DNA of 18,560 nucleotides from Candidatus Bathyarchaeota archaeon (lineage in GTDB: Archaea > Thermoproteota > Bathyarchaeia > Bathyarchaeales > SOJC01), in assembly GCA_030641425.1 (NCBI GenBank), contig DAOWHM010000009.1:1-18560 (forward strand), given 5' to 3'. The notes under the pieces were generated by a model that had not been told where the DNA came from, did not search any database, and worked only from the letters and a program-made list of their open reading frames with translations. Shown piece after piece: positions 1 through 18,560 of this stretch (within the stretch, counting starts at the first letter, position 1; the number at the start of each line of letters is the position of its first letter). Made by a program: the position numbers and the translations under genes.

Positions 1-710
1 ACTTCCTCTTTAATCATCTCTTGAACCTTCCCGTTTATCTTCAGATTATGTTCCTCTAAAGCTTCGGGATCAAGGTACAAACTTTTAATCAGATTTGGAG
101 GGCGTCCCTTAGCACCTGTCAAAGCCCATCCTTTCATAGGAAGACTCACTTGAGTTCTCTTTTCAAACTCGACTGGTTCCATCATTTGACCCATATAACC
201 ATCTCCCAAGATCATCACAGGATTTCGATATTTATCTGCAAGATCGAAGGATTCCATTGTAAGCGAAACAGCTTCCTGCACAGTATGAGGTGCCAACACA
301 AGCAGATGATAATCACCATGTCCTCCACCCTTAGTCGCCTGGAAGTAGTCAGATTGCGAAGGTTGTATACCTCCCAATCCAGGTCCACCCCGCATTATAT
401 TCACTATGACGCATGGAAGCTCAGCGCCAGCAAGATAAGAAATCCCTTCTTGCATAAGGCTGACCCCAGGACTAGAAGAAGAAGTCATCACCCTTTCCCC
501 TGCCCCTGCTGCGCCAAAGAGCATGTTAATAGCGGCTACTTCACTCTCTGCCTGAAGGTAAACCCCACCAACCTCTGGAAGGCGTTTAGACATATACTCG
601 GGGATTTCACTCTGAGGAGTAATAGGGTAACCAAAGAAGTGTTTACAACCAGCTTGAATTGCAGCTTCAGCGATGGCTTCGTTACCAGTCATAAACCTCT
701 TATCCATCAT
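1..710 (-). CDS. vorB: 2-oxoacid:ferredoxin oxidoreductase alpha subunit, VorB type (partial, C-terminus off the left edge)
   Basis: Oxidative decarboxylation of a 2-oxoacid (branched-chain 2-oxoisovalerate or a related acid) to acyl-CoA with ferredoxin as acceptor; cytoplasmic. Reading the minus strand from ATG at 710, the frame stays open to base 1 and gives about 236 residues. Visible are the thiamine-pyrimidine domain signature GYPITPQSE, the AESEVAA stretch with the Glu expected to contact the thiamine ring, an SSSSPG turn, and the glycine-rich [14 protein letters not shown] region followed by GGGHGDY, which I associate with VorB-type rather than pyruvate- or 2-oxoglutarate-type alpha subunits. 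The start overlaps the stop of the upstream ferredoxin gene (ATGA), so translation is probably coupled. The TPP-binding beta and the gamma subunits should lie beyond the left edge. Family assignment is strong; the exact substrate is inferred. Confidence 0.88.
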
Positions 711-937
711 CTCTTCCCTCCAACCTTCTTCTCTCGATAAACCTCTATGGCAACATCAGGACATGTTATTGCGCACAAAGTGCAACCAGTGCATTTCCCA
801 TTTGGATCAACAAACTCAGCTGGATAGTAACCCTTCGAGCTGATCCGCTGAGAAATGCTGATGATGTGGAATGGACAAGCATACACACACAACTCGCAAC
901 CTTTACAGACATTCTCGTCAATAACGATTTTGCCCAT
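707..937 (-). CDS. Ferredoxin-like (delta) subunit of a 2-oxoacid:ferredoxin oxidoreductase
   Basis: A 76-residue protein carrying two [4Fe-4S] cluster motifs: C11, C14, C17 and C21, then C49, C52, C55 and C59, each followed by a proline-containing turn. This is the dicluster ferredoxin layout of KorD/VorC-like subunits, which pass electrons from the thiamine/cluster core of the enzyme to free ferredoxin. It is the first gene of the leftward operon and overlaps the start of the alpha subunit by 4 bases. The start is an ATG at 937, with a GAGAGG sequence about ten bases upstream as a likely ribosome binding site. The length is usual for the family. The only uncertainty is which 2-oxoacid enzyme it serves; the neighbouring alpha subunit points to a VorB-type enzyme. 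Confidence 0.88.
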
Positions 938-1168: not shown

Positions 1169-1729
1169 ATGGCAAATTTACAGGAAGTACGATGGCACGG
1201 TCGAGGCGGACAAGGTGCATGGACAGCAAGCGAACTCCTCGCCAAAGCCGCTATCATTGAGGGAAAGCATATCCAATCATTCCCAGAGTTCGGACCTGAA
1301 CGCATGGGCGCGCCTTTAGCAGCTTACACCAGAATCAGCAACGAACCAATTAGACTCCACTGCTCCATATACAACCCAAACTTAGTAGTCGTACTTGACC
1401 CAACACTGTTACGATCGGTTGATGTATTGGCTGGTCTTACCGAAGAGGGAACGATAGTTGTCAACACTCAAGAAAACCCTCAAACACTCAAAGAGAAGTT
1501 AAAAATAACCTCACAAAAAGTCTGGACAGTTCCAGCAACGGACATTGCCATCAAAATCTTAAATGCTCCCATCACAAACACCGCAGTGCTTGGAGCCACA
1601 ATTCATGCGTCATCACTAGTAAACCTGGAAAGCCTCGAAAAGGCTGTCAGAGAACGCTTCAGAGAAGAACTAGCTGAAAGAAACATAGCTGTAATAAGAA
1701 ACGCATACGAGGAGGCAAAAACTGCATGA
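1169..1729 (+). CDS. porC: Pyruvate:ferredoxin oxidoreductase gamma subunit
   Basis: Gamma subunit (186 residues) of the four-subunit archaeal pyruvate:ferredoxin oxidoreductase, which converts pyruvate and CoA to acetyl-CoA and CO2 with reduction of ferredoxin, and in autotrophs can run in the carboxylating direction. The N-terminus has the family hallmark WHGRGGQG (residues 9-16), followed by FPEFGPERMGAP (39-50), both typical of the gamma domain that takes part in CoA binding. Length is normal. The ATG start at 1169 has a GAAGGAA stretch about seven bases upstream. Its stop overlaps the porD start (ATGA), and the order gamma-delta-alpha-beta matches archaeal por operons. Specificity for pyruvate rather than another oxoacid is inferred from the subunit set and the alpha subunit. 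Confidence 0.93.
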   Translation: MANLQEVRWHGRGGQGAWTASELLAKAAIIEGKHIQSFPEFGPERMGAPLAAYTRISNEPIRLHCSIYNPNLVVVLDPTLLRSVDVLAGLTEEGTIVVNTQENPQTLKEKLKITSQKVWTVPATDIAIKILNAPITNTAVLGATIHASSLVNLESLEKAVRERFREELAERNIAVIRNAYEEAKTA

Positions 1730-2013
1730 ACAAGACACTCAAAGGATGGAAAGACATCCCGATTGCCGGAGTCTGCTGGAAACCTGCCACACAATACCTC
1801 ACTGGTGACTGGAAAACTTTCAAACCCATCCATGATGCTGAAAAATGCACAAAATGTCTTCTTTGCCCCATGATCTGCCCAGATTCTGCCATAAAATGGA
1901 ATCAAACTAACGAGGAGATTGAGTTCGACTATGACTTCTGCAAAGGCTGTGGCATATGCGCCAACGAGTGCCCAGCTGACGCTATAAAGATGGTGAGAGA
2001 AGGTGGAGAATAA
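1726..2013 (+). CDS. porD: Pyruvate:ferredoxin oxidoreductase delta subunit (2x[4Fe-4S])
   Basis: A 95-residue ferredoxin-like subunit. About 36 N-terminal residues resemble those of PorD proteins (CWKPATQYLTGDWKTFKP region). Then come two cluster motifs, C41/C44/C47/C51 and C72/C75/C78/C82. It relays electrons from the core clusters to the external ferredoxin. The start codon at 1726 overlaps the porC stop by 4 bases, and the C-terminus overlaps the GTG start of porA by 11 bases, so the cluster is tightly coupled. Nothing is unusual in length or motif content. Confidence 0.93.
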   Translation: MNKTLKGWKDIPIAGVCWKPATQYLTGDWKTFKPIHDAEKCTKCLLCPMICPDSAIKWNQTNEEIEFDYDFCKGCGICANECPADAIKMVREGGE

Positions 2014-3244
2014 GTTGGCAGTTGCGCAACAGAAAACCCTTGCAATGAACGGTGATGAAGCGGTCGCTCTCGCCGTTAAACAATCAGATGTAGACGTGGT
2101 TGCAGCGTATCCCATAACACCACAAACAATCATTGTTGAAAGATTAAGCGAATACGTAGCAAATGGCGAAGTAGAAACCGAGTTCGTCTGCACAGAATCT
2201 GAACACAGCGCTTTAACCGCTTGCTTAGCTGCATCTGCCACTGGAGCTCGAACCTTCACAGCATCAGCCTCAGCCGGTCTAGCGTTGATGCATGAAATAC
2301 TGTATGTCACATCTGGATGTAGAGCACCCGTAGTGATGGCCATCGCAAACCGAGCCCTATCCGCCCCTATAAACATACACTGCGACCACTCCGACAGCAT
2401 GGTAGAGAGAGACAGTTGCTGGATACAGATCTACGCAGAGAACTCACAGGAAACCTACGACTCAATGATCCAATCTTTCAGAATAGCTGAACATCTACAG
2501 GTGCTTCTCCCAGTTATGGTTTGCCTAGATGCATTTGTCCTCAGCCACACCTTGGAAAATGTCCAAATCTTGGCGGATGAAACCGTCCGGAAATTTGTTG
2601 GTGTTAGGCAATTTCCATTGGTGATGGGTCATGAGGGCAAAGAGGTACCTTTCAAGCTTGACCCTAATAACCCGATAACAATGGGTCCTCTAGACCTTCA
2701 TGACTACTATTTTGAGCATAAAAGGCAGCAAGAAGAAGCAATGAAGATCGCCCCACGGATTATCAAGGAAATACACGAAGAGTTCTCCCGAATCAGTGGG
2801 CGCAAATATGGAAATGGACTCATTGAGGCTTACCGTCTTGAAGACGCAGACATCGCTACAGTCTGTGTCGGCTCAACTGCCGGCACAACAAAAACGGTAG
2901 TAGATCACCTCCGAACTAAAGGGACAAAGGCAGGCCTACTACGGCTTAGAACTTTCAGACCGCTCCCATTAACTGAAATCATGGGGGCATTGGAAAACGT
3001 GAAGGCGCTGGCAATTATGGATCGAAGCAATAGTTTTGGAGGAAGTGGTGGACCAATATACCATGAAATCAGACACTCCATGTATGATGCTCCTACGCAC
3101 CCACATATTGTGAACTACATATATGGACTTGGAGGAAGAGATATGCCCCCAACAACTATTCTCAACATCTACAAAGACTTGCAGGAAATCCTCCAAACAA
3201 AGAAGGTGAAGAGAGATGTACAATTTGCAGGAGTACGACAATAG
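2003..3244 (+). CDS. porA: Pyruvate:ferredoxin oxidoreductase alpha subunit
   Basis: Alpha subunit, 413 residues, which binds the pyrimidine end of thiamine diphosphate. The N-terminal domain shows AAYPITPQT (about 34-42) and the TESEHSAL stretch (about 64-71) with the conserved Glu. SASAGLALMHE and NRALSAPINIHCDHSD follow, and a C-terminal transketolase-like domain begins near residue 285 (CVGSTAGTTKTVVDHL). The length is that of stand-alone PorA. The start taken is GTG at 2003, eleven bases inside porD, because a purine-rich GAGAGAAGG sits just upstream. The first ATG, at 2045, has no such site. The protein is followed after 11 bases by porB. Confidence 0.93.
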   Translation: MENKLAVAQQKTLAMNGDEAVALAVKQSDVDVVAAYPITPQTIIVERLSEYVANGEVETEFVCTESEHSALTACLAASATGARTFTASASAGLALMHEILYVTSGCRAPVVMAIANRALSAPINIHCDHSDSMVERDSCWIQIYAENSQETYDSMIQSFRIAEHLQVLLPVMVCLDAFVLSHTLENVQILADETVRKFVGVRQFPLVMGHEGKEVPFKLDPNNPITMGPLDLHDYYFEHKRQQEEAMKIAPRIIKEIHEEFSRISGRKYGNGLIEAYRLEDADIATVCVGSTAGTTKTVVDHLRTKGTKAGLLRLRTFRPLPLTEIMGALENVKALAIMDRSNSFGGSGGPIYHEIRHSMYDAPTHPHIVNYIYGLGGRDMPPTTILNIYKDLQEILQTKKVKRDVQFAGVRQ

Positions 3245-3255
3245 GAGACAATAAG

Positions 3256-4230
3256 ATGACAACAACATCTTGGAAACCTACTGCAAAAGAGATCGTGGAA
3301 AAAGCGGAACTCTTCACATCTGGACACCGAGCATGTGCAGGATGCGGTCCAGCTATCGCCCTACGACAGGTAATGAAGGCCACAAGGGGTCCTACAATAG
3401 TCACAAATGCGACAGGATGCATGGAGGTCGTTTCAACAATCTATCCCTACACCGCATGGAAAGTTCCTTGGATCCACACAGCCTTCGAAAACGTTGCAGC
3501 CAACGCTTCAGGCATCGAAGCCGCCTTGAAAGCCATGAAAAGAAAAGGAAGACTTGCACATGAAAATATCGATGTCATAGCGTTTGCTGGTGATGGAGGA
3601 ACATTCGACATTGGAATCCAAGCACTTTCTGGGGCTGTAGAGCGAGGTCACGACTTTCTGTATGTACTCTACGACAACGAAGCTTACATGAACACAGGCA
3701 TCCAACGAAGCGGAAGCACCCCTCACGGCGCATCGACCACTACATCACCTGCTGGCAGAGTGATCCCAGGCAAACTTCAATACAAGAAGCCCATCGCTGA
3801 TATCATGGTAGCGCATGAAATCCCTTATGTCGCAACAGCTTCAATCGCCTACTGGCAAGATCTACTAGTGAAAGCTAGAAGAGGCTTGGAAACAGAAGGC
3901 CCAGCTTTCATGCATATCTTTACGCCTTGTCCAAGAGGGTGGCGTTACGACACAAGCAAAACAATAGAAATCGCTCGCTTAGGAGTAGAAACATGTATCT
4001 TCCCACTGTGGGAAACAATTGATGGCGAATACAACTTGTCTCCTCAAAGCAAAATCTTTGCCTTGAAGCCTGAAAGGAAAAAGAAGATTTCCGGATATCT
4101 TAAGATGCAAAGACGGTTTAAACATCTATTCAGACCAAAATTCAAACACGTGATTGATGAGATTCAACATAGAGTCGATGAACGCTGGAACAGACTCCTA
4201 AAAAGGTGTAACATGACTCAATCAGATTAG
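3256..4230 (+). CDS. porB: Pyruvate:ferredoxin oxidoreductase beta subunit (TPP-binding)
   Basis: Catalytic beta subunit, 324 residues, carrying thiamine diphosphate and the proximal [4Fe-4S] cluster. Cluster ligands are visible as C27 and C30 (ACAGC), C55 (TGC) and C225 (PCPRGW). The thiamine diphosphate motif starts at GDGG (112-115) and ends at DNEAYMNTG (140-148). It starts at ATG 3256, 11 bases after porA, with GGAG eight bases upstream. It is the last gene of the porCDAB run. Its stop overlaps the stop of the convergent DUF2070 gene by 3 bases. All expected cofactor residues are present, so an active enzyme is likely. Confidence 0.94.
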   Translation: MTTTSWKPTAKEIVEKAELFTSGHRACAGCGPAIALRQVMKATRGPTIVTNATGCMEVVSTIYPYTAWKVPWIHTAFENVAANASGIEAALKAMKRKGRLAHENIDVIAFAGDGGTFDIGIQALSGAVERGHDFLYVLYDNEAYMNTGIQRSGSTPHGASTTTSPAGRVIPGKLQYKKPIADIMVAHEIPYVATASIAYWQDLLVKARRGLETEGPAFMHIFTPCPRGWRYDTSKTIEIARLGVETCIFPLWETIDGEYNLSPQSKIFALKPERKKKISGYLKMQRRFKHLFRPKFKHVIDEIQHRVDERWNRLLKRCNMTQSD

Positions 4231-8975: not shown

Positions 8976-11900
8976 TTAGGCAAAATCTGCAATACGCTTC
9001 TGCCGCGGCTTGTTACCTTCGAATATGGTAATCAACTCTTCTTCTACCAACCCTAAGCGTTGCAGGTAGTATTTCGGCAGCTTATACTTCTCAACAAGAT
9101 TCCTTGCGGTAACGATGTATTTCTCGATTCCCCCTCTGTAAACCGTCAAAGATAAATGCCCTCCGCATTTTAGGCACCTTCCCTTCAGAGGGATACGTCG
9201 GAACCGTTTGTTACACGTTTTGCAACGGAAACCTTGAGTCAAAAAAGCCCGGAGATTCCCGGAAATATCCCTAAGAAAATGAGTTGTTAGAACTTTCAAA
9301 GCTACTTTTTGGGCGTCGACGGCGGAGATCTTCTCCGCAAGTTCCAACTGACGATTAAGCTTGTCCGTCATCTTTTTAAGCTTCTTGTACATGCTTTCAT
9401 GATTTCCCGCGTTTATATCGGTAACTGGGACTGTGTAGCCAAAACCTTCAAACTGTTCTTCTGTTCCCAGTTTATGGACAAGTAAATCGATAAGGTTTGT
9501 TACTCTCCATGGGGCAACATTCTCCCATGTGTTCTCGTAAAAGGTTAAAGGATATTGTTTAGCGATGTCGAACTCGTGGGCCTGTCTTTGCACTTCTTTG
9601 GGATTGACAACGGGTATGATGAAAAGTGGTGCATCCATTATGCCACCAATTTGAGAAGGAAGATAGCTCTTGGAGAAGTTCAATAATGTGTCAAGAGCTA
9701 GCATCAAAGCGTCTTCATCTCCATCGCAATCGCGTCGCTTTGCTGAATGCCACACTGGGTGAGCATAGCATACGTCAAGTTTGGTGAAACCAATAACTCG
9801 GCCTAAGATGCCTACAGAAGTGTGAGGGGCTAAACCAATAACGAGGTGACCGAGAAGATCCTCTATTCGGTTGACGTTGTAGTATCTGGGAAGCCCGTAA
9901 ACTTTTTCCAGAAGTTGGTCGATAAATTTCGCTTCTCGAATGAAGTAAATCGCACACTTTCGGGGAATCACAACGTCTTGGACTCTCAACTCACAAAGCT
10001 GTTCTCCACTTGACAAAGGGATATTTTGGCAGTCTTTTGTGTAACCTAAAAGTTTGAGTTTTTCTATTGAAACTCCAACTTCCACCGGTTTGAAATGTGT
10101 GAGCGGGGCGTTTGTTGCATCAAAACGCATGGTTCCGTCTTTGTAGACGGATAGATCCTCCTTGGCGCGAAGAATTCCCTTTTCCAAGATTTCAGCAACT
10201 CTGTGTTCGTTCGATAGTCCTTTCACTCCTTTGATGTGTTTGGGTTGACTAACCTCTAATCGTTGGCAAGCATCATTAATTTCAGCTTTCAGATCAATTC
10301 TTTGTCGTTCAAAGACGCAGGTAGAGACACCACAAGCTGGACAAACATCACCATCAACACTTTTCCCACAACGAGGACAAGCCCTCTCCAAAACTGCCTC
10401 CGCGAAGCAAGAGAGGCATTTGATGTTTCGTGATAGCTTCCCACAGCCGGGGCAACGCCGTTTCGCTAATTCCACGTCAATAGGTCCCTTTTGAGCAGCC
10501 GCAATCAAATCACGTTGCGACCCCCCAGCCAAACCTACAGGAAAGAGAAGGTGGACGCGGGGTTTCATCTCTCTTCTTTTTGCCTTCTCTGGTCTACCCA
10601 TTCTCGCTCCTACTGTTGTTGGCGCTTTAGCGCGAACGATGATGCCGGAAAGGTTTCTTACAATCTCTAAGGATGACAGTGTTGGGTCAACTTTGACTTT
10701 CGAGTTTAAACTCAAACAAGTAGCCAGAATAAGAGCTTCGTCGCCTTCAACAAACATACGACCTTCAAGTACTCGATGAGGGAGACATAGCTTCTCAAGT
10801 GTCTTCTTAACGTTAGGATCGATTTCACCCATCATCTTAACTATCTCTTCTTCTCCTTTTCGAGTTTCTGAACTCTCCAACCATCGCCGTAATTTCCCCA
10901 ACTCTTCCGGAGTTATGTTGGACCAGTGAAAGTTATGACAGGGATGGAGAGGTACATCCAAGCCTTTGGCTATAGCAATTGCTTCTTGTGCATTAGGTTT
11001 ATGTCTAAGAGGAAGCGAGAGAAATGCGTCTAAACGTTGGTTTGAGATGCCAGTGGCTAAGGCAGCCTCCCCAACATTACCTCCAAATCTTAGATTTATA
11101 GCTGCGTGCAAATCCTGACACCACCACTCTTCACAGTATCCTGAGGGAGAGAGTGTTTTGTTGTTGTAAAGGAAGTCGCCAAAGCTGATCAGCAAATCGC
11201 CTAAAGATAGGATCCGGTGAATCTTGCTTCTTATTTGGGCATAATTGCTCTTTGAGACTCTAGCTACTGAGCCGTCCTTGAGGAGCACTGTTGGTGTCTC
11301 TATCGTATCTACAGGCATGACAACCCCGCCTTTGCCGGGCAACTCTATACGCATCTGTGTACCGCCAGCAAGAAACCTATTCAGAACTAACATAGTCAAG
11401 GGATGGATCCCGACAGCTGCGAGACCAGTATTTCTTGCCCTGCCGTAGCGAAGGCGAAAACCGCCTGGCTGCGAAGGGAAAGAAAAGACTGGGCGACCAG
11501 CAATGACGTCTTCCATGAAGCCTAAATTGTTACGTTTCTCTCCGTCGGTTCCTTCAACTTCTCTCACATCTTTCAGCCAATCCCATCCTTCGATCCCAAG
11601 TTTTTTAACTATTGTACGAACTTTTGTGGCTCGTCCGACGATGCCGTCATTTATTACGCGCAATGCGCCGCCACGGACATTGTTCGTTTCCACCCTAGGC
11701 AGATCACGGTAGGATTGCACCTCAACGGGATCAGATTTTGTTCCAGTAACTTCAATAGGGACTGATTCGATGGCCATTCGCAGTTGAGAATCGGCAACGT
11801 GATATTGAAAACGACCTACGTTCCGTTCATAAAGCCTCATTTCTTCGATAAATCTGCTTATCTCCTCCTCAGTAGGCTTATAGCGGTCTAAACCTAGAAG

Positions 11901-12452
11901 GCGGCGCACAAAATCTCCGATTATGAGCGTTAATGCTTGATCAGTTCCCCCAGCAGAACGTATAGGACCTGCATAGTATATGGCTAAGTACTTGGTTCCG
12001 TCAAAATTCTCTTTGACAGAAACTTTCGCCACTCCTTGAAGGGGAGCAGCAGTTATACCCTCGGTGAGTATGGCGAGAGCTGTTCGAACAGCCTGTTCTG
12101 CTGCGCTCTGGGTCTCTAAGTGACCAAACTTGCCGTATACGATCTCCTCGGCGATCTTGAACGCCAATTCTTCACGAGGGAGTTTCTCGCTCAAACTTCT
12201 TATGCTTGTGGCTACCCCTGTAGGACCTACTAGACCTTCCACAAGTTCAGCAAGGTCTTTACCAACTTCCGACTCTGGCTCTAGGGACGGGTCTAATCCC
12301 TTTGCCCTTGCTTTCCTGGCAACCGTGAAAAGTTTTTCCAGCTCCTCCTCTAGAGACTCTGCGTAACGCTTGTATTCAATGCTCATCTTGGCATTCAAAT
12401 GATCGCCCAACGACATTACACGTAGAAGCATATTTCGGGTTTTTGCCATCAA
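8976..12452 (-). CDS. polC: DNA polymerase D large subunit DP2
   Basis: Catalytic subunit of the archaeal replicative polymerase PolD, 1158 residues. Conserved landmarks are YYAGPIRSAGGTDQA (159-173), ETNNVRGGALR (255-265), RYGRARNTG (335-343) and ARMGRPEKA (616-624). A cysteine-rich zinc region has C667, C670, C679, C682, C692, C695, C704 and C707. The catalytic loop DCDGDEDA (908-915) places the active-site aspartates at D910 and D912, and a C-terminal zinc ribbon has C1077, C1080, C1093 and C1096. The tail QKRIADFA (1151-1158) resembles a PCNA-interacting box. There is no intein in the catalytic loop. The start is uncertain: TTG 12452, ATG 12449 and an internal ATG 12386 are all in frame, and none has a clear ribosome binding site. 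It lies 26 bases after the GGGP synthase gene. Confidence 0.96.
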   Translation of the reverse strand: MMAKTRNMLLRVMSLGDHLNAKMSIEYKRYAESLEEELEKLFTVARKARAKGLDPSLEPESEVGKDLAELVEGLVGPTGVATSIRSLSEKLPREELAFKIAEEIVYGKFGHLETQSAAEQAVRTALAILTEGITAAPLQGVAKVSVKENFDGTKYLAIYYAGPIRSAGGTDQALTLIIGDFVRRLLGLDRYKPTEEEISRFIEEMRLYERNVGRFQYHVADSQLRMAIESVPIEVTGTKSDPVEVQSYRDLPRVETNNVRGGALRVINDGIVGRATKVRTIVKKLGIEGWDWLKDVREVEGTDGEKRNNLGFMEDVIAGRPVFSFPSQPGGFRLRYGRARNTGLAAVGIHPLTMLVLNRFLAGGTQMRIELPGKGGVVMPVDTIETPTVLLKDGSVARVSKSNYAQIRSKIHRILSLGDLLISFGDFLYNNKTLSPSGYCEEWWCQDLHAAINLRFGGNVGEAALATGISNQRLDAFLSLPLRHKPNAQEAIAIAKGLDVPLHPCHNFHWSNITPEELGKLRRWLESSETRKGEEEIVKMMGEIDPNVKKTLEKLCLPHRVLEGRMFVEGDEALILATCLSLNSKVKVDPTLSSLEIVRNLSGIIVRAKAPTTVGARMGRPEKAKRREMKPRVHLLFPVGLAGGSQRDLIAAAQKGPIDVELAKRRCPGCGKLSRNIKCLSCFAEAVLERACPRCGKSVDGDVCPACGVSTCVFERQRIDLKAEINDACQRLEVSQPKHIKGVKGLSNEHRVAEILEKGILRAKEDLSVYKDGTMRFDATNAPLTHFKPVEVGVSIEKLKLLGYTKDCQNIPLSSGEQLCELRVQDVVIPRKCAIYFIREAKFIDQLLEKVYGLPRYYNVNRIEDLLGHLVIGLAPHTSVGILGRVIGFTKLDVCYAHPVWHSAKRRDCDGDEDALMLALDTLLNFSKSYLPSQIGGIMDAPLFIIPVVNPKEVQRQAHEFDIAKQYPLTFYENTWENVAPWRVTNLIDLLVHKLGTEEQFEGFGYTVPVTDINAGNHESMYKKLKKMTDKLNRQLELAEKISAVDAQKVALKVLTTHFLRDISGNLRAFLTQGFRCKTCNKRFRRIPLKGRCLKCGGHLSLTVYRGGIEKYIVTARNLVEKYKLPKYYLQRLGLVEEELITIFEGNKPRQKRIADFA

Positions 12453-14827: not shown

Positions 14828-16465
14828 TTGGTTAGAGCCTCAAATCACTTTGATGCAAAAACGAATGAATCTAACGGTTGGTCTATTGTGGTCACAAAGC
14901 ACATAGTAGAAAAGTCAAGAGATTATAAGGTTCGTGAAGCTATCTCCCTGTCTCTGAGAGCAGGCTATCACCTTGACAAGGAAGCTTACGGATTCCTGCG
15001 CACAATTTCTGGAACTAAGGATCCTGTAGAGTTCTTAGAGGTAACTCTACGAAGACTAGAAGCTTATGGAAAAAGAACTTTCTTCATAGACAAGGCGCTC
15101 CTTGAAGAAATCGCTGAAGAAATCTTTCCTCAAGCCAAAGAGGCTAGACCATCAGCTGAACCCTACCTCCAAAAACATTCCGCAAGTACGGGAAAGGCTC
15201 GAAGATACCAGCCTCATGCAAAAGATATAGACAGCGATATCAACGTGATAGATGACCCAACAGACAGAATTCGCTCAACTGGCTCAATTGAAGAGTACTT
15301 GAAATATTTCCAAGATAGATTCAAGAAGACTCGAAGATTGCTTCAACAACGAATGGATTCAAGAAATGCCACATCCATAAAGGAAGTGTTCCGAGCGCCC
15401 CCACACTCAAAAACTAAATTTATATGCATAGTTACTGAGAAACGCGAGTCACCCCGCGGAGTTTTCTTAATAACTGAAGACTTGGAAACTGGAACAACCG
15501 TATTCATTCCTTCCAATGCTCCTCCTGAGCTCCTACTGAAGACAAAGTCGATATTACCTGATCAGGTTGTATGCTTGAGCATAATAAAAGGCAGAGGAAA
15601 TTTACTGATAGTTGAAGACATCCATTTTCCCGATATCCCCCAACGGAAACCACGAAGAGCCCAAGAAGCAGTGAGTGCTGCATTAATATCAGACCTTCAT
15701 GTAGGAAGCAGAGAATTCATGAGAGAAGAGTTTAACCGCTTTCTGCTTTGGCTCAATGGAAAATTCGGACCCCAGAAGCTGAAGGAAGCAGCTAGTTTGA
15801 TCAAATATGTCATTATTGCTGGTGACATCGTAGATGGCGTGGGGATTTATCCAAATCAAATTGAAGACCTCACCATTCGAGATATTTCAAGACAATATAG
15901 AGTCGCTTCGGAATTCATCGAACAGATTCCTGATTATGTGGAATTGATCATCATACCTGGAAACCATGATGCCTCCAGGAAAGCCCTACCCCAACCTAGC
16001 CTGCCAAAGGAATACGTCGAGATTCTACGTGAGACACGAAACGTGCTTTCATTAGGTAACCCAGCAACTGTGAGTATTCATGGAGTGGAGCTCCTCACAT
16101 ATCATGGTCGGAGCCTCGACGATATACTTGCTACAGCTGTAAATATGGACTTCCACTCCCCTGAGAGAGCTATGAAGCTTATGTTGAAGTGCCGACATCT
16201 TGCACCGATTTATGGTCAAAGAACCCCTATTGCCCCTGCAAACAGAGACTTACTTGTCATTGACCGGGTTCCGGACATCTTCCACACAGGGCATGTACAT
16301 GTGATGAGGTATGAAACTTACAGGGGCACAATCATGATTAATTCGGGTGCTTGGCAGAGGCAAACCAATTTTCAACGGAATTTGGGTCTAGAGCCTACAC
16401 CAGGCGTCATACCGATTATAGATTTGCAGACTCACGCCATTCTACCTATAGACTTCAATGCCTAA
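14828..16465 (+). CDS. polB: DNA polymerase D small subunit DP1 (proofreading exonuclease)
   Basis: The small PolD subunit, 545 residues, with a 3'-5' exonuclease of the calcineurin/Mre11 phosphoesterase type. There is an N-terminal helical domain (about 33-100), a charged linker (about 105-150), an OB-fold (about 195-270) and a C-terminal phosphoesterase domain. Its metal motifs are all intact: SDLHVG (D289, H291), GDIVDG (D333), PGNHD (N379, H380), YHGRS (H426) and TGHVHV (H489, H491). TTG 14828 is the first start after an in-frame stop at 14795. GTG 14888 is an alternative closer to the first conserved helix; neither has a strong ribosome binding site. It is divergent from AbrB-PhoU and overlaps the end of orc1/cdc6 by 4 bases. 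Confidence 0.95.
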   Translation: MVRASNHFDAKTNESNGWSIVVTKHIVEKSRDYKVREAISLSLRAGYHLDKEAYGFLRTISGTKDPVEFLEVTLRRLEAYGKRTFFIDKALLEEIAEEIFPQAKEARPSAEPYLQKHSASTGKARRYQPHAKDIDSDINVIDDPTDRIRSTGSIEEYLKYFQDRFKKTRRLLQQRMDSRNATSIKEVFRAPPHSKTKFICIVTEKRESPRGVFLITEDLETGTTVFIPSNAPPELLLKTKSILPDQVVCLSIIKGRGNLLIVEDIHFPDIPQRKPRRAQEAVSAALISDLHVGSREFMREEFNRFLLWLNGKFGPQKLKEAASLIKYVIIAGDIVDGVGIYPNQIEDLTIRDISRQYRVASEFIEQIPDYVELIIIPGNHDASRKALPQPSLPKEYVEILRETRNVLSLGNPATVSIHGVELLTYHGRSLDDILATAVNMDFHSPERAMKLMLKCRHLAPIYGQRTPIAPANRDLLVIDRVPDIFHTGHVHVMRYETYRGTIMINSGAWQRQTNFQRNLGLEPTPGVIPIIDLQTHAILPIDFNA

Positions 16466-17715
16466 CTCCTTCTAAGTTTTCCCTTCAAGCATGTTGGAGT
16501 GAAATTAGTTAACAAATCCAAATAGTCGTCATTTGCATATATCTTCTTGAAGGGGCTGCGCGGTATAGCTAGGCTTATCTTCTTTGTGCGTCCATATCGT
16601 CCTCTGCTAACAACGCGTGCATTGAGCAATCCCATCGCGTCAAGCTCATTTATAAGCCCACTGACCCTTCTCTGAGTTAAAGTTGATGTACCAACTTCCT
16701 TACACAATTCGCCGTAGACTTCGTATATGTCACCAGTAATCGCTGCGGAGATATTAGCCTTACCGAGGAAATATACGCTGAAGAGAACGAGCTTTGAGTG
16801 GGTTGTTAAATTTGTCAATGCGTCAAAGACTCTATCGTGTTCAATTCTTCTGGCAGCCTCTCTCACATGATCTTCTGTTATCGCATCCGCATTATTCCTC
16901 TCTGCTACTTCACCGGCTACACGTAACAAGTCAAGAGCACGTCTTGCATCCCCATGCTCACCTGCAGCCAAAGCCGCGCACAGACCTATCGCTCCATCTA
17001 ATAACACGTTTCCACAGAAGGCCAACTTAGCTCGTTCCTGTAAAATGTCCCGAAGCTCAGAAGCATCATAAGGTCGGAACATTATTTCTTCTTCACTAAG
17101 AGAACTCAGAACACGCGGCTCCAACAACTCTTTAAAACACAGGTCGTTTGAAATTCCTACAATGGAAACCTTACTGCTCGCGAGTACTTCATTAATTCTC
17201 GTTAGTTCATACAAAAGCCCATCTCCCCTTGTCTTAACAAGCTCATCAATCTCGTCTAATACAGCGATGAAAGAAACTTTCCGCACTTCCAACCCCTTTT
17301 TAAGCCTATCAAAAATCTCTCCAACTGCAAGACCAGTAAAAGGCACATGGACTTCTATTGCTTCACATAAGCTTGTAAATACCCTATATTCCGTTCCAGC
17401 CAACCTACAATTTACATACGCTACCTTGACAGATGCACCAGACTCCGCAGCTTTCCGCTCTAAACGACTCAATACATATTTCATTGCAACAGTTTTCCCA
17501 GTTCCTGGTTTTCCATAAATGAAAACATTAGAACAGCGCGCCATCTTAAGAATTGGTGCAACAATCATCCCCAAATATTTAATCAGAGTTTCACGATGAG
17601 GCAGCTTCGGTGGAACATAATCATGGCGAAGTACATCCCTATCTTTAAAGAGTTGAAAATTGCTAAGAAATCGCTCAAAGACATCATCGAGCATATCTAC
17701 CTCAATCTTCTCCAT
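16462..17715 (-). CDS. cdc6: Orc1/Cdc6-type replication initiator
   Basis: AAA+ origin-binding and helicase-loading protein. The frame opens at a TTG at 17793, but ATG 17715 is chosen (417 residues). The extra 26 codons contain the likely TATA box, and GGGAGAAAG lies before the ATG. Numbered from the longer form, Walker A is GKPGTGKT (94-101), Walker B is VLDEID (178-183), sensor 1 is N216 in GISND, and sensor 2 is GDARRALDLL (281-290). A winged-helix DNA-binding domain (about 325-425) includes TQRRVSGLINELDAMGLL and the wing RGRYGRTKKISL. It converges with DP1. The A/T-rich non-coding stretch upstream holds ORB-like repeats, as expected when an initiator gene sits beside its origin. Confidence 0.95.
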   Translation of the reverse strand: MEKIEVDMLDDVFERFLSNFQLFKDRDVLRHDYVPPKLPHRETLIKYLGMIVAPILKMARCSNVFIYGKPGTGKTVAMKYVLSRLERKAAESGASVKVAYVNCRLAGTEYRVFTSLCEAIEVHVPFTGLAVGEIFDRLKKGLEVRKVSFIAVLDEIDELVKTRGDGLLYELTRINEVLASSKVSIVGISNDLCFKELLEPRVLSSLSEEEIMFRPYDASELRDILQERAKLAFCGNVLLDGAIGLCAALAAGEHGDARRALDLLRVAGEVAERNNADAITEDHVREAARRIEHDRVFDALTNLTTHSKLVLFSVYFLGKANISAAITGDIYEVYGELCKEVGTSTLTQRRVSGLINELDAMGLLNARVVSRGRYGRTKKISLAIPRSPFKKIYANDDYLDLLTNFTPTCLKGKLRRS

Positions 17716-17771
17716 ATACGAAACTTTCTCCCTTCGGCAAATGCACTTGTAGAGCCCCACTTTCAACTGGA

Positions 17772-17781
17772 AAAAATAAAC
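17772..17781 (-). promoter_or_regulatory. TATA box for orc1/cdc6
   Basis: Reads GTTTATTTTT on the minus strand. The predicted start is near 17750, giving a leader of about 35 bases before ATG 17715. It overlaps a TGGAAA-containing sequence that weakly resembles the nearby origin boxes. Confidence 0.45.
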
Positions 17782-17858
17782 CCTTTTGTACAAAAAGTTG
17801 AAGATATGCTATAGAACTCGAAAACTAAGAATTATTTCCAATAGCGTTTACAAATGGT

Positions 17859-17875
17859 ATGAGATCACATCTCAT
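17859..17875. repeat. Perfect 7-bp inverted repeat (ATGAGAT, 3-base spacer)
   Basis: ATGAGAT and ATCTCAT flank CAC with no mismatch. It lies between the cdc6 promoter and the first ORB-like box. Size and symmetry suit a binding site for a dimeric protein; its partner is unknown. Confidence 0.5.
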
Positions 17876-17902
17876 TATCAGTTTAAAGAATCCTTTAACA
17901 CA

Positions 17903-17925
17903 CACACCCCACCATTTCCGGTAGA
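17903..17925 (-). repeat. ORB-like box C
   Basis: On the minus strand the 20-base core is TCTACCGGAAATGGTGGGGT (17925 down to 17906), followed by GTG. It shares GGAAA, the uninterrupted GGGG and the final T with box B (14 of 20 identical), but its left dyad half is degenerate. Its G run points towards cdc6. Confidence 0.5.
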
Positions 17926-18000
17926 ATACCTAAAGAATATATGTGGATGTTGGTTTATATGGATAAAAACATACTCCACCTCTTAAGTTAATTTATTGCT

Positions 18001-18018
18001 TTTATAGTAATCTATAAA
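18001..18018. repeat. A/T-rich dyad in the origin region
   Basis: TTTATAG, a four-base spacer TAAT, then CTATAAA: a perfect 7-bp inverted repeat inside the A/T-rich stretch between boxes C and A. It could be a melting element, a protein site or chance in A/T-rich DNA. Confidence 0.35.
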
Positions 18019-18095
18019 GATTTCTGTACAAAATATTCTTTGACTTTAGATTTGAACGTTTTTGTATATAGTATCAATCCTTATCTTTAATCATG

Positions 18096-18120
18096 TTTTC
18101 CAGTGGAAATAAAGGAGTGC
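18096..18120 (+). repeat. ORB-like box A
   Basis: Plus-strand core TCCAGTGGAAATAAAGGAGT at 18099-18118. The TTCCAGTGGAAA dyad is the best-known part of archaeal origin recognition boxes. The following G run is broken by one A (GGAG). It matches box B at 16 of 20 positions, and all four differences are transitions. Confidence 0.65.
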
Positions 18121-18242
18121 GGCGCTAACTTGTATTATAGCTTTACATAATTGTGAAATTCTTGTGATCTTCCTTAAACATTTGGCTCTCTCCTTACCAA
18201 TTCACTTAATCTTTATCAATTGGGCTAGTTTCCTGTGAAGAA

Positions 18243-18266
18243 CAGACCCCTTCGTTTCCATTGGAG
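18243..18266 (-). repeat. ORB-like box B
   Basis: Minus-strand core TCCAATGGAAACGAAGGGGT (18265 down to 18246). It has the dyad plus an intact GGGG run, the full ORB pattern. It is inverted relative to box A, so the two G runs face each other across about 127 A/T-rich bases. Confidence 0.67.
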
Positions 18267-18462
18267 AAATAAAAGCAAAGGCAAGTTGTTTTTTCAAAGT
18301 TAAGAACCGTTTGTGAATAGTGTTAAGTGAGAAATAGCTACAATTCAGGTCATAAATACTTGTACGTCGCCATTCTTTCAATTCTTTTATTCACAATAGA
18401 TAGTCATAAGAGCTATAACCTGTGAACTCATATTGTTAAGGCCTTGGCTCGTGATGATTGCA

Positions 18463-18560
18463 ATGCCCGCTAAAAAAATGCGAATCGAAATACTCGATGA
18501 GGAAGGAAACCGTTACACAATTTCATTCGAAGGAAAGGTAACTAAGCAGAAAGCACTACG
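18463..18560 (+). CDS. Origin-flanking protein of unknown function (partial, runs off the right edge)
   Basis: The N-terminal 32 residues of a protein starting MPAKKMRIEILDEEGNRY and continuing TISFEGKVTKQKAL; the frame is open to the window end. The charged, strand-forming pattern looks like real coding sequence, but I do not recognise the family. In-frame starts exist at GTG 18451, ATG 18454, ATG 18463 and ATG 18478. ATG 18463 is chosen because GTGAT at 18451-18455 matches part of the archaeal Shine-Dalgarno sequence at a suitable distance. TTTTATTC at 18385-18392 may be its TATA box. It is divergent from cdc6 across the putative origin, so its expression may be tied to that region. The product cannot be named from this fragment. 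Confidence 0.6.
   Translation, partial: MPAKKMRIEILDEEGNRYTISFEGKVTKQKAL

What the first reader, a model, noticed from the sequence alone, without database searches (positions are those of the whole stretch)
18096..18266. Two inverted ORB-like boxes facing each other across an A/T-rich spacer: a likely origin core
Boxes A (plus) and B (minus) share 16 of 20 core positions, with only transitions between them, and both carry a TCCAnTGGAAA dyad followed by a G run. Their G runs converge on an A/T-rich spacer of about 127 bases, next to an orc1/cdc6 gene. This is the architecture of experimentally known archaeal origins and makes the spacer a candidate unwinding site. To my knowledge origins are little described in uncultured lineages that have PolD.
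Basis: partly seen in the sequence, partly recalled or inferred. Interest (0 to 1): 0.78.

Follow-up and report, generated by a model that had tools for sequence, protein, structure and literature searches.

The report
Bathyarchaeal replication origin with second motif
This stretch looks like the chromosomal replication start site of an uncultured archaeon, and next to the known initiator-binding boxes it carries a second, precisely spaced DNA motif and a neighbouring DNA-binding gene whose role is unknown and testable.

Summary
Boxes A and B are real origin recognition boxes (ORBs): nothing else in the 1.0 Mb own assembly matches the ORB pattern with at most one mismatch. The order C(-) A(+) B(-) upstream of cdc6 is present in 81 of 88 regions examined, so this is very probably oriC.

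New here: B lies in a block of about 305 bp (18139-18444) that aligns without gaps across the order and stops sharply at both ends. YTGTGAA copies fall in eight registers at set distances from B, on average 3.6 exact per region. The block ends at an uncharacterised winged-helix gene, found in 189 of 299 sampled genomes of the phylum.

Best reading: C-A is the Cdc6 loading site; B plus the array is a second nucleoprotein element, probably bound by the winged-helix protein. Binding, unwinding and origin activity are not shown.

The parts
16462..17712 (-). orc1/cdc6 gene (Cdc6-1 type)
   Evidence: TIGR02928 410.8 bits, cut-off 181.3; Cdc6_C and Cdc6_lid. Start taken as ATG at 17712; the open frame runs on upstream to 17793
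17750..17773 (-). box D, weak ORB just upstream of cdc6
   Evidence: 13 bits; called in some relatives and not in others
   Evidence: 22 bits here; flank with CACACCCC conserved
17928..18096 (.). C-A spacer, candidate duplex unwinding element, 169 nt, AT 75.1%
   Evidence: least stable 60 bp of the region is centred at 18011
18097..18120 (+). box A, ORB
   Evidence: 29 bits; coordinates
18121..18243 (.). A-B spacer, 123 nt, AT 65.0%
18139..18444 (.). rigid block: ungapped conserved DNA around box B
   Evidence: pairwise identity in 20 nt steps 0.38-0.70 inside against 0.27-0.32 outside, 76 non-redundant of 81 sequences
18151..18157 (+). YTGTGAA copy, register -95 (TTGTGAA)
18162..18168 (+). 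YTGTGAA copy, register -84 (TTGTGAT, 1 mismatch)
18233..18239 (+). YTGTGAA copy, register -11, beside the G run of box B (CTGTGAA)
18244..18267 (-). box B, ORB
   Evidence: 33 bits; coordinates
18311..18317 (+). YTGTGAA copy, register +69 (here +67; TTGTGAA)
   Evidence: exact match in the wider register window (missed by the narrower one); position
18420..18426 (+). YTGTGAA copy, register +175 (CTGTGAA), just after CTATAAC
18433..18439 (+). YTGTGAA copy, register +190 (TTGTTAA, 1 mismatch)
18463..18560 (+). 5' end of the winged-helix (wHTH) gene, cut by the contig end after 32 codons
   Evidence: matches family model A1 positions 1-32, E 1e-14; whole gene in L014
14828..16465 (+). DNA polymerase D small subunit (DP1), meets cdc6 tail to tail
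   Evidence: NF003118 467 bits, cut-off 445

Best explanation
The region 17750-18462 is the chromosomal origin (oriC) of a Bathyarchaeia genome, made of two units. Unit 1: boxes C and A, facing away from each other, bind Cdc6-1 and flank a 169 bp A/T-rich stretch where MCM would be loaded and DNA first opened. Unit 2: box B sits in a fixed-length DNA scaffold of about 305 bp with YTGTGAA copies, mostly on one strand, at set distances from B, ending just before the start of a divergent winged-helix gene. I propose that the winged-helix protein binds the YTGTGAA copies, controls its own gene there, and with Cdc6 at B forms a defined complex that tunes origin firing. Shown: the boxes, their conservation, the fixed registers, the linkage of B and array to the gene, the lack of a coding frame. 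Inferred: binding by Cdc6 and by the winged-helix protein, the site of opening, the effect on firing.
For: C(-)A(+)B(-) in 81 of 88 regions, 81 of 85 of those at least 700 nt long. In 10 of 10 single-contig relatives (of 17 such) the only place with two or more ORB matches within 1 kb is beside cdc6-1. Least stable DNA in C-A in 67 of 81. YTGTGAA density 9.3 per kb in A-B and 8.2 per kb right of B, against 0.24-0.29 per kb left of A; 275 of 315 of these copies are on the top strand. Exact copies per register 18-55 of 81 against 0.1-0.4 in shuffles. Copies keep to B, not A: of 43 exact copies in register -95, 41 lie at -95 or -94, while their distance from A has SD 46.7 nt. Block bounded sharply at about -105 and +200 of B; anchoring on A or C shows little beyond the boxes. 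In f10, where cdc6 is about 3.8 kb off, B, a copy at -16 and the winged-helix gene stay together in 3 of 3. In G021, which keeps C and A, B, array and gene are all missing. The 80 nt step from the copy beside B to the next is exact in 4 of 4 loci of f11 and f12, and a copy at +68 or +69 recurs in f29, f33 and f38, outside the class. In genus g60 most copies read TGTTAA (19 against 3 TGTGAA in four regions), as expected of sites for one protein. In 4 of the 6 distant archaeal loci with an inverted ORB pair the AT-richest 60-mer lies inside a (-)(+) pair like C-A, 5 if a pair 535 nt apart counts.
Against: No binding, footprint or replication data exist. GC skew near a relative's locus (G144, +-200 kb) changes sign at the locus but similar swings occur elsewhere. 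f10 genomes have B but no ORB within 1.5 kb upstream of cdc6 in 3 of 3 (single matches 2.3 kb upstream in G165 and G168, none in G173), so C-A cannot be the core everywhere. The LS(T/A) residue of the putative recognition helix does not predict the motif variant (L067). 9 of 20 winged-helix genes sampled in the wider phylum have no such ORB. YTGTGAA pairs are not confined to the origin: in 9 genomes 24 pairs against 4 control, 18 of the 24 away from the origin; 8 of the 12 I opened lie inside ORFs. RNAalifold energies in f1 and f4 are small (-0.7 to -2.2) but below column shuffles (about 0), so weak pairing is not excluded. In 4 of 85 long regions the triple was not called: A just under threshold in two, no B in one, N-masked in one.
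Confidence: 0.6

Rival explanations
1. One reading: A and B are the functional inverted pair and the spacer between them is the unwinding site; the YTGTGAA copies inside it act like the Sulfolobus ucm.
For: A and B are the strongest boxes here (29 and 33 bits) and face each other. In Sulfolobus two inverted ORBs flank the unwinding region, whose middle carries an essential non-ORB motif (PMC12141716, introduction passages and sections 6, 7, 12 read). TTGTGAA is in 70 of 81 A-B spacers on either strand.
Against: A-B is the more stable DNA in 78 of 81. A-B length varies 141-272 in the order and exceeds 600 in four families. The registers ignore A.
Confidence: 0.25
2. The rigid block is only the regulatory region of the winged-helix gene: Cdc6 at B and a repressor at YTGTGAA control its transcription, with no role in replication.
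For: Copies at +175 and +190 lie about 20-45 nt before the start codon in most relatives, the first beside a CTATAAC word. Block and gene stay together away from cdc6 in f10.
Against: Eight registers over 300 bp and an ungapped block are more than a usual archaeal promoter needs (general knowledge), and the block sits in the origin in most of the regions examined.
Confidence: 0.3
3. YTGTGAA is bound by another factor (a nucleoid protein like Sulfolobus UBP, or the second Cdc6), not by the winged-helix protein.
For: UBP binds hundreds of genomic sites (PMC12141716, abstract). A second Cdc6 exists on C70. YTGTGAA pairs away from the origin: 18 in nine genomes against 4 control in all.
Against: Array and winged-helix gene are linked and are missing together in G021.
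Confidence: 0.35
4. The block is a structured RNA leader or a small gene.
For: Ungapped conservation over 305 nt could suit both. RNAalifold gives -2.2 (f1) and -1.0 (f4), below column shuffles near 0.
Against: No Rfam hit. Energies are tiny for 315 nt and zero in f5 and in the full set. 5.6-7.6 stops per frame in about 105 codons on either strand.
Confidence: 0.04

Closest known systems
Sulfolobus oriC1 (Orc1-1, ORB1-3, ucm and UBP)
   Same: Initiator gene beside inverted ORBs flanking A/T-rich DNA; a conserved non-ORB motif between ORBs (PMC12141716).
   Different: ucm is an 11 bp site in the unwinding region bound by UBP, an essential 111-residue protein. Here the second motif is a multi-copy array at fixed registers around one ORB, linked to a winged-helix gene. 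That paper calls ubp a relatively recent acquisition of Desulfurococcales and Sulfolobales and asks for analogues in other lineages.
Haloarchaeal oriC1 (Haloarcula hispanica)
   Same: Inverted ORBs with G strings; an extra repeat between them acts as an enhancer (PMC3936714, passages).
   Different: The extra repeat there is a G-rich inverted repeat; here it is a direct repeat YTGTGAA extending far outside the ORB pair.
Sulfolobus oriC3-whiP
   Same: A winged-helix protein gene at an origin (PMC4010727, section 4).
   Different: oriC3 has neither ORB nor mini-ORB (PMC4010727, section 9); here the gene sits at an ORB origin beside Cdc6. WhiP was not compared by sequence.
Nitrosopumilus maritimus single origin
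   Same: A named thaumarchaeon contig (L017) has cdc6, two ORBs and a homologous winged-helix gene in the same order. A single mapped origin in N. maritimus is reported in PMC4010727 section 8.
   Different: In the f25 loci, which resemble L017 in layout, YTGTGAA copies at these registers were not seen.

Membership tests
Archaeal Orc1/Cdc6-ORB replication origin | orc1/cdc6 gene adjacent | tested here: met
Archaeal Orc1/Cdc6-ORB replication origin | two or more inverted ORBs with dyad and G string | tested here: met
   A, B, C
Archaeal Orc1/Cdc6-ORB replication origin | A/T-rich unwinding element flanked by ORBs | tested here: met
   C-A spacer, AT 75.1%, least stable 60 bp; as composition only
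Archaeal Orc1/Cdc6-ORB replication origin | GC-skew change at the locus | tested here: inconclusive
   G144 +-200 kb, weak sign change within noise; own contig is 18.6 kb only
Archaeal Orc1/Cdc6-ORB replication origin | Cdc6 binds the boxes; replication starts here | not testable with these tools
   needs footprinting and marker frequency
Sulfolobus ucm/UBP element | non-ORB motif between inverted ORBs, needed for activity, bound by UBP | not tested
   position alike; ucm letters and UBP homologues were not compared, activity not testable
Winged-helix DNA-binding protein | winged-helix fold in the origin-linked protein | tested here: met

The most novel reading that the evidence does not exclude
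Bathyarchaeia origins use a second, previously undescribed code: a rigid array of YTGTGAA sites phased to one ORB and read by an origin-encoded winged-helix protein that is shared with thaumarchaeal relatives. It would be a dedicated origin regulator or helicase-loading partner, an analogue of Sulfolobus UBP in another lineage, feeding back on its own gene.
Probability: 0.4. Interest if true: 0.75.

Novelty: new variant of a known kind. Interest (0 to 1): 0.62.

Why it matters
Beyond Cdc6 and ORBs, little is known of what acts at archaeal origins. The 2025 Sulfolobus UBP paper (PMC12141716, Discussion read) ends by asking whether divergent archaea have analogous origin proteins. Here is a candidate gene, its probable binding word, a spacing rule and a distribution, in a lineage that uses DNA polymerase D. 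One binding assay on a 138-residue protein tests it.

Tried and rejected
RNA leader: no Rfam match; alifold zero for the full set with controls also zero, so weak as a test; by family, f1 -2.2/-1.8, f4 -0.7/-1.0, f5 0, shuffles about 0. Small ORF: stops in all frames. GC skew: inconclusive. YTGTGAA regulon: I opened 12 of the 18 pairs lying away from the origin; 8 lie inside ORFs of at least 90 codons, 4 between. Six proteins near those 4 were scanned: amino acid kinase, MFS transporter, asparaginase-like protein about 500 nt off, metallo-beta-lactamase fold, ArsR-like regulator, one without a family; no common theme. Helix residue against motif variant: one genus changes in concert, but L067 breaks the residue rule. 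Box polarity from haloarchaeal plasmids: six regions fetched, no clear ORB pairs by a GAAA..GGGG pattern, no conclusion. Polarity from papers: a review says the lid and winged-helix domains face the unwinding element (PMC6742236, passages) and others that AAA+ touches the G string (PMC3936714, PMC7776575, passages), which would put the dyad side inward as in C-A; this is inference, no passage I saw states it. Sigma-70 scan: one hit against a shuffle mean of 2.7, not relevant to archaea. Best PDB sequence match of the winged-helix family is E 0.036. Absence from a fold list was not used as evidence.

Full report
Setting. The window is a whole 18,560-base contig (C3) of a 1.00 Mb, 145-contig assembly, 79.5% complete. 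Its closest named relatives by Cdc6 are Candidatus Bathyarchaeota MAGs (88, 74 and 66% identity). It carries cdc6 (16462-17712, minus), the DNA polymerase D small subunit (14828-16465) and large subunit (8976-12452). A second Cdc6 lies on contig C70. The contig ends 98 bases into a small winged-helix gene.

The observation. Boxes A (18097-18120, +) and B (18244-18267, -) are as described. In the own assembly they are the only two matches to TTCCANNGGAAANNNAGGGG with at most one mismatch; box C (17904-17927, -) is one of three places with two. A weak fourth box, D, lies at 17750-17773.

Conservation. I examined 88 regions upstream of cdc6-1, the window's own included: 33 loci in hand less five duplicates or near-identical ones (L030, L038, L016, L051, L052), and 60 fetched for the purpose. 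The search behind it found Cdc6 in 160 of 162 genomes of the order, so about half were examined, the best matches first. C(-)A(+)B(-) at 18 bits or more is present in 81 of 88. The seven misses: L039, L056 and L117 are cut by contig ends; L045 and L097 have A just under 18 bits; L053 has no B; L063 is masked by N. In 10 of 10 single-contig genomes (chosen from 17; G012 and G014 are near-identical) the only place with two or more pattern matches within 1 kb is beside cdc6-1, while single matches elsewhere are near control level. This is what a single ORB-type origin would look like.

Which spacer opens? The least stable 60 bp lies in C-A in 67, in A-B in 5, left of C in 3 and right of B in 6 of 81 regions; C-A is weaker than A-B in 78 of 81. 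In the window C-A is 169 nt at 75.1% AT and A-B 123 nt at 65.0%. C-A spacing is 174-200 in 62 of 81 (range 119-265); A-B ranges from 141 to 272. In f20, f26, f49 and f50 (five loci) A and B are over 600 nt apart; in the four of these loci where C is seen, C-A is still 172-180. Of nine named loci outside Bathyarchaeia (L017-L025), six show an inverted ORB pair at 12 bits or more; in four the AT-richest 60-mer lies inside a (-)(+) pair like C-A, in L021 it does so only if a pair 535 nt apart counts, in L022 it does not. Against this, in f10 only B remains next to the winged-helix gene, no ORB lies within 1.5 kb upstream of cdc6 (single matches lie 2.3 kb upstream in G165 and G168), and the converging A-B pair also fits the term 'inverted ORBs' used for Sulfolobus (PMC12141716).

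The second motif. The 24 most over-represented seven-base words between A and B are all forms of TTGTGAA, which is in 70 of 81 spacers (expected 6.1); right of B it is in 75 of 81 (expected 7.4); it is not among the top words between C and A. YTGTGAA density is 9.3 and 8.2 per kb in those two zones, 275 of 315 copies on the top strand, against 0.24-0.29 per kb left of A. Measured from the left edge of B the copies fall in registers -104 (bottom strand), -95, -84, -11, +69, +79, +175 and +190 (top strand): exact in 18, 43, 41, 32, 39, 25, 55 and 39 of 81, against 0.1-0.4 in shuffles (38 for +69 with the narrower window). 76 of 81 regions have two or more exact registers, 65 have three or more, none has zero; the mean is 3.6. 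Of the 43 copies in register -95, 31 are at -95 and 10 at -94; their SD is 0.5 nt from B, within a 12 nt search window that caps it, and 46.7 nt from A. The window has exact copies at -95, -11, +69 and +175 and one-mismatch copies at -84 and +190. Families use the registers differently: f4 favours +79 (19 of 21), f5 +190 (36 of 38), f6 keeps only +175 well (5 of 5).

A rigid block. Without any gaps, anchored on B, mean pairwise identity in 76 non-redundant of 81 sequences is 0.38-0.70 between -105 and +200 and 0.27-0.32 outside. Anchoring on A or on C shows little beyond the boxes and short flanks. There is no open frame, no Rfam match, and RNA folding energies are zero or tiny, though in f1 and f4 below shuffles. 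So about 305 bp of DNA (window 18139-18444) has kept its length while its letters drifted, as expected for a protein-DNA scaffold.

Other families. The winged-helix gene follows in 82 of the 88 regions; four of the six misses are cut short, the others are L053 and L063. Outside the order, 20 regions upstream of the gene were taken from families f10-f20. One is too short; 17 of 19 have an ORB(-) about 150-240 nt before the gene match. In f11 and f12 the copy beside B sits at -15 or -16 and the 80 nt step to the next is exact in 4 of 4. In the wider phylum 11 of 20 chosen regions have such an ORB (f25, f26, f29, f33, f38, f49, f50) and 9 do not (f30, f34, f45, f46, f53, f56). There a copy at +68 or +69 of B recurs in 3 of 3 loci of f29, f33 and f38, and one at +180 or +181 in f26 (two loci), f29 and f33; f25 shows none at these registers. 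The named thaumarchaeon locus L017 has cdc6, two ORBs and the winged-helix gene in the same order. G021 keeps C and A, but B, all YTGTGAA copies and the winged-helix gene are missing; that genome is only 63% complete.

The gene. The protein is about 138 residues. The L014 copy has no Pfam or NCBIfam assignment. It has 1330 homologues, of which 120 were listed, mostly unnamed or 'hypothetical protein'; three of the 120 carry PF03965, penicillinase repressor. The family matches 149 of 190 class genomes (completeness limit 80) and 189 of 299 sampled phylum genomes, one match per genome in the listed rows. The model (mean pLDDT 81) shows a beta hairpin and helix, then a winged helix. Structural matches are generic winged-helix proteins.

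Who reads YTGTGAA? The copies at +175 and +190 lie just before the gene's start. The array's copy beside B and the gene stay together where cdc6 is about 3.8 kb away (f10, 3 of 3) and are missing together in G021. In genus g60 most registers read TGTTAA (19 against 3 TGTGAA in four regions); as a check, left of A TGTTAA outnumbers TGTGAA 22 to 5 over all 81, so background adds a little. This fits one protein with many sites. A single helix residue does not explain the change (L067). Pairs of YTGTGAA also occur away from the origin (18 in nine genomes, 4 in the reversed control in all), which could mean a small regulon or a general DNA-binding protein. The link to the winged-helix protein is therefore an inference.

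Literature seen. PMC12141716 abstract, passages and sections 6, 7, 12; PMC4010727 abstract and sections 4 (part 1), 8, 9; passages of PMC3528665, PMC3936714, PMC6742236, PMC3984812, PMC4588119 and PMC7776575; others as search listings only. In the listings of the ten searches no title or abstract start describes this motif or gene at an origin; most subscription papers are not held.

Verdict. The origin call is sound and by itself ordinary: a new member of the ORB-origin kind. The fixed-register array with a linked winged-helix gene is a new variant and a concrete answer to test for the question left open by the Sulfolobus work.

Noticed in passing
window 17928-18096, about 17960-17975; relatives' C-A spacers: A third conserved word, TATACTC / ATACTCT (part of GAAATATACTCTGA), just right of box C: TATACTC in 38 and ATACTCT in 39 of 81 spacers on either strand, expected 2-3; weaker in the window. 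Could be a promoter or another protein site.
   Followed up: no
window 3-937 and 1169-4230: Two sets of 2-oxoacid:ferredoxin oxidoreductase-like reading frames in opposite orientation at the left end of the contig (from the translations; family recalled, not searched).
   Followed up: no
   Followed up: no
L200, L201, L205 and L208-L210 (family f10): Box B and the winged-helix gene stand alone; cdc6 lies about 3.8 kb away with no ORB of this type within 1.5 kb upstream. Single pattern matches lie 2.3 kb upstream of cdc6 in G165 and G168. Where this family starts replication is open.
   Followed up: partly
G000:C70:591-1685: Second Cdc6, NF001623 313.5 bits against cut-off 311; its surroundings were not searched for its own boxes beyond the genome-wide pattern.
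   Followed up: no
G016:C1:961156 and G016:C1:1076549: The same 17-base YTGTGAA pair occurs twice in this genome in intergenic DNA near unrelated genes.
   Followed up: partly
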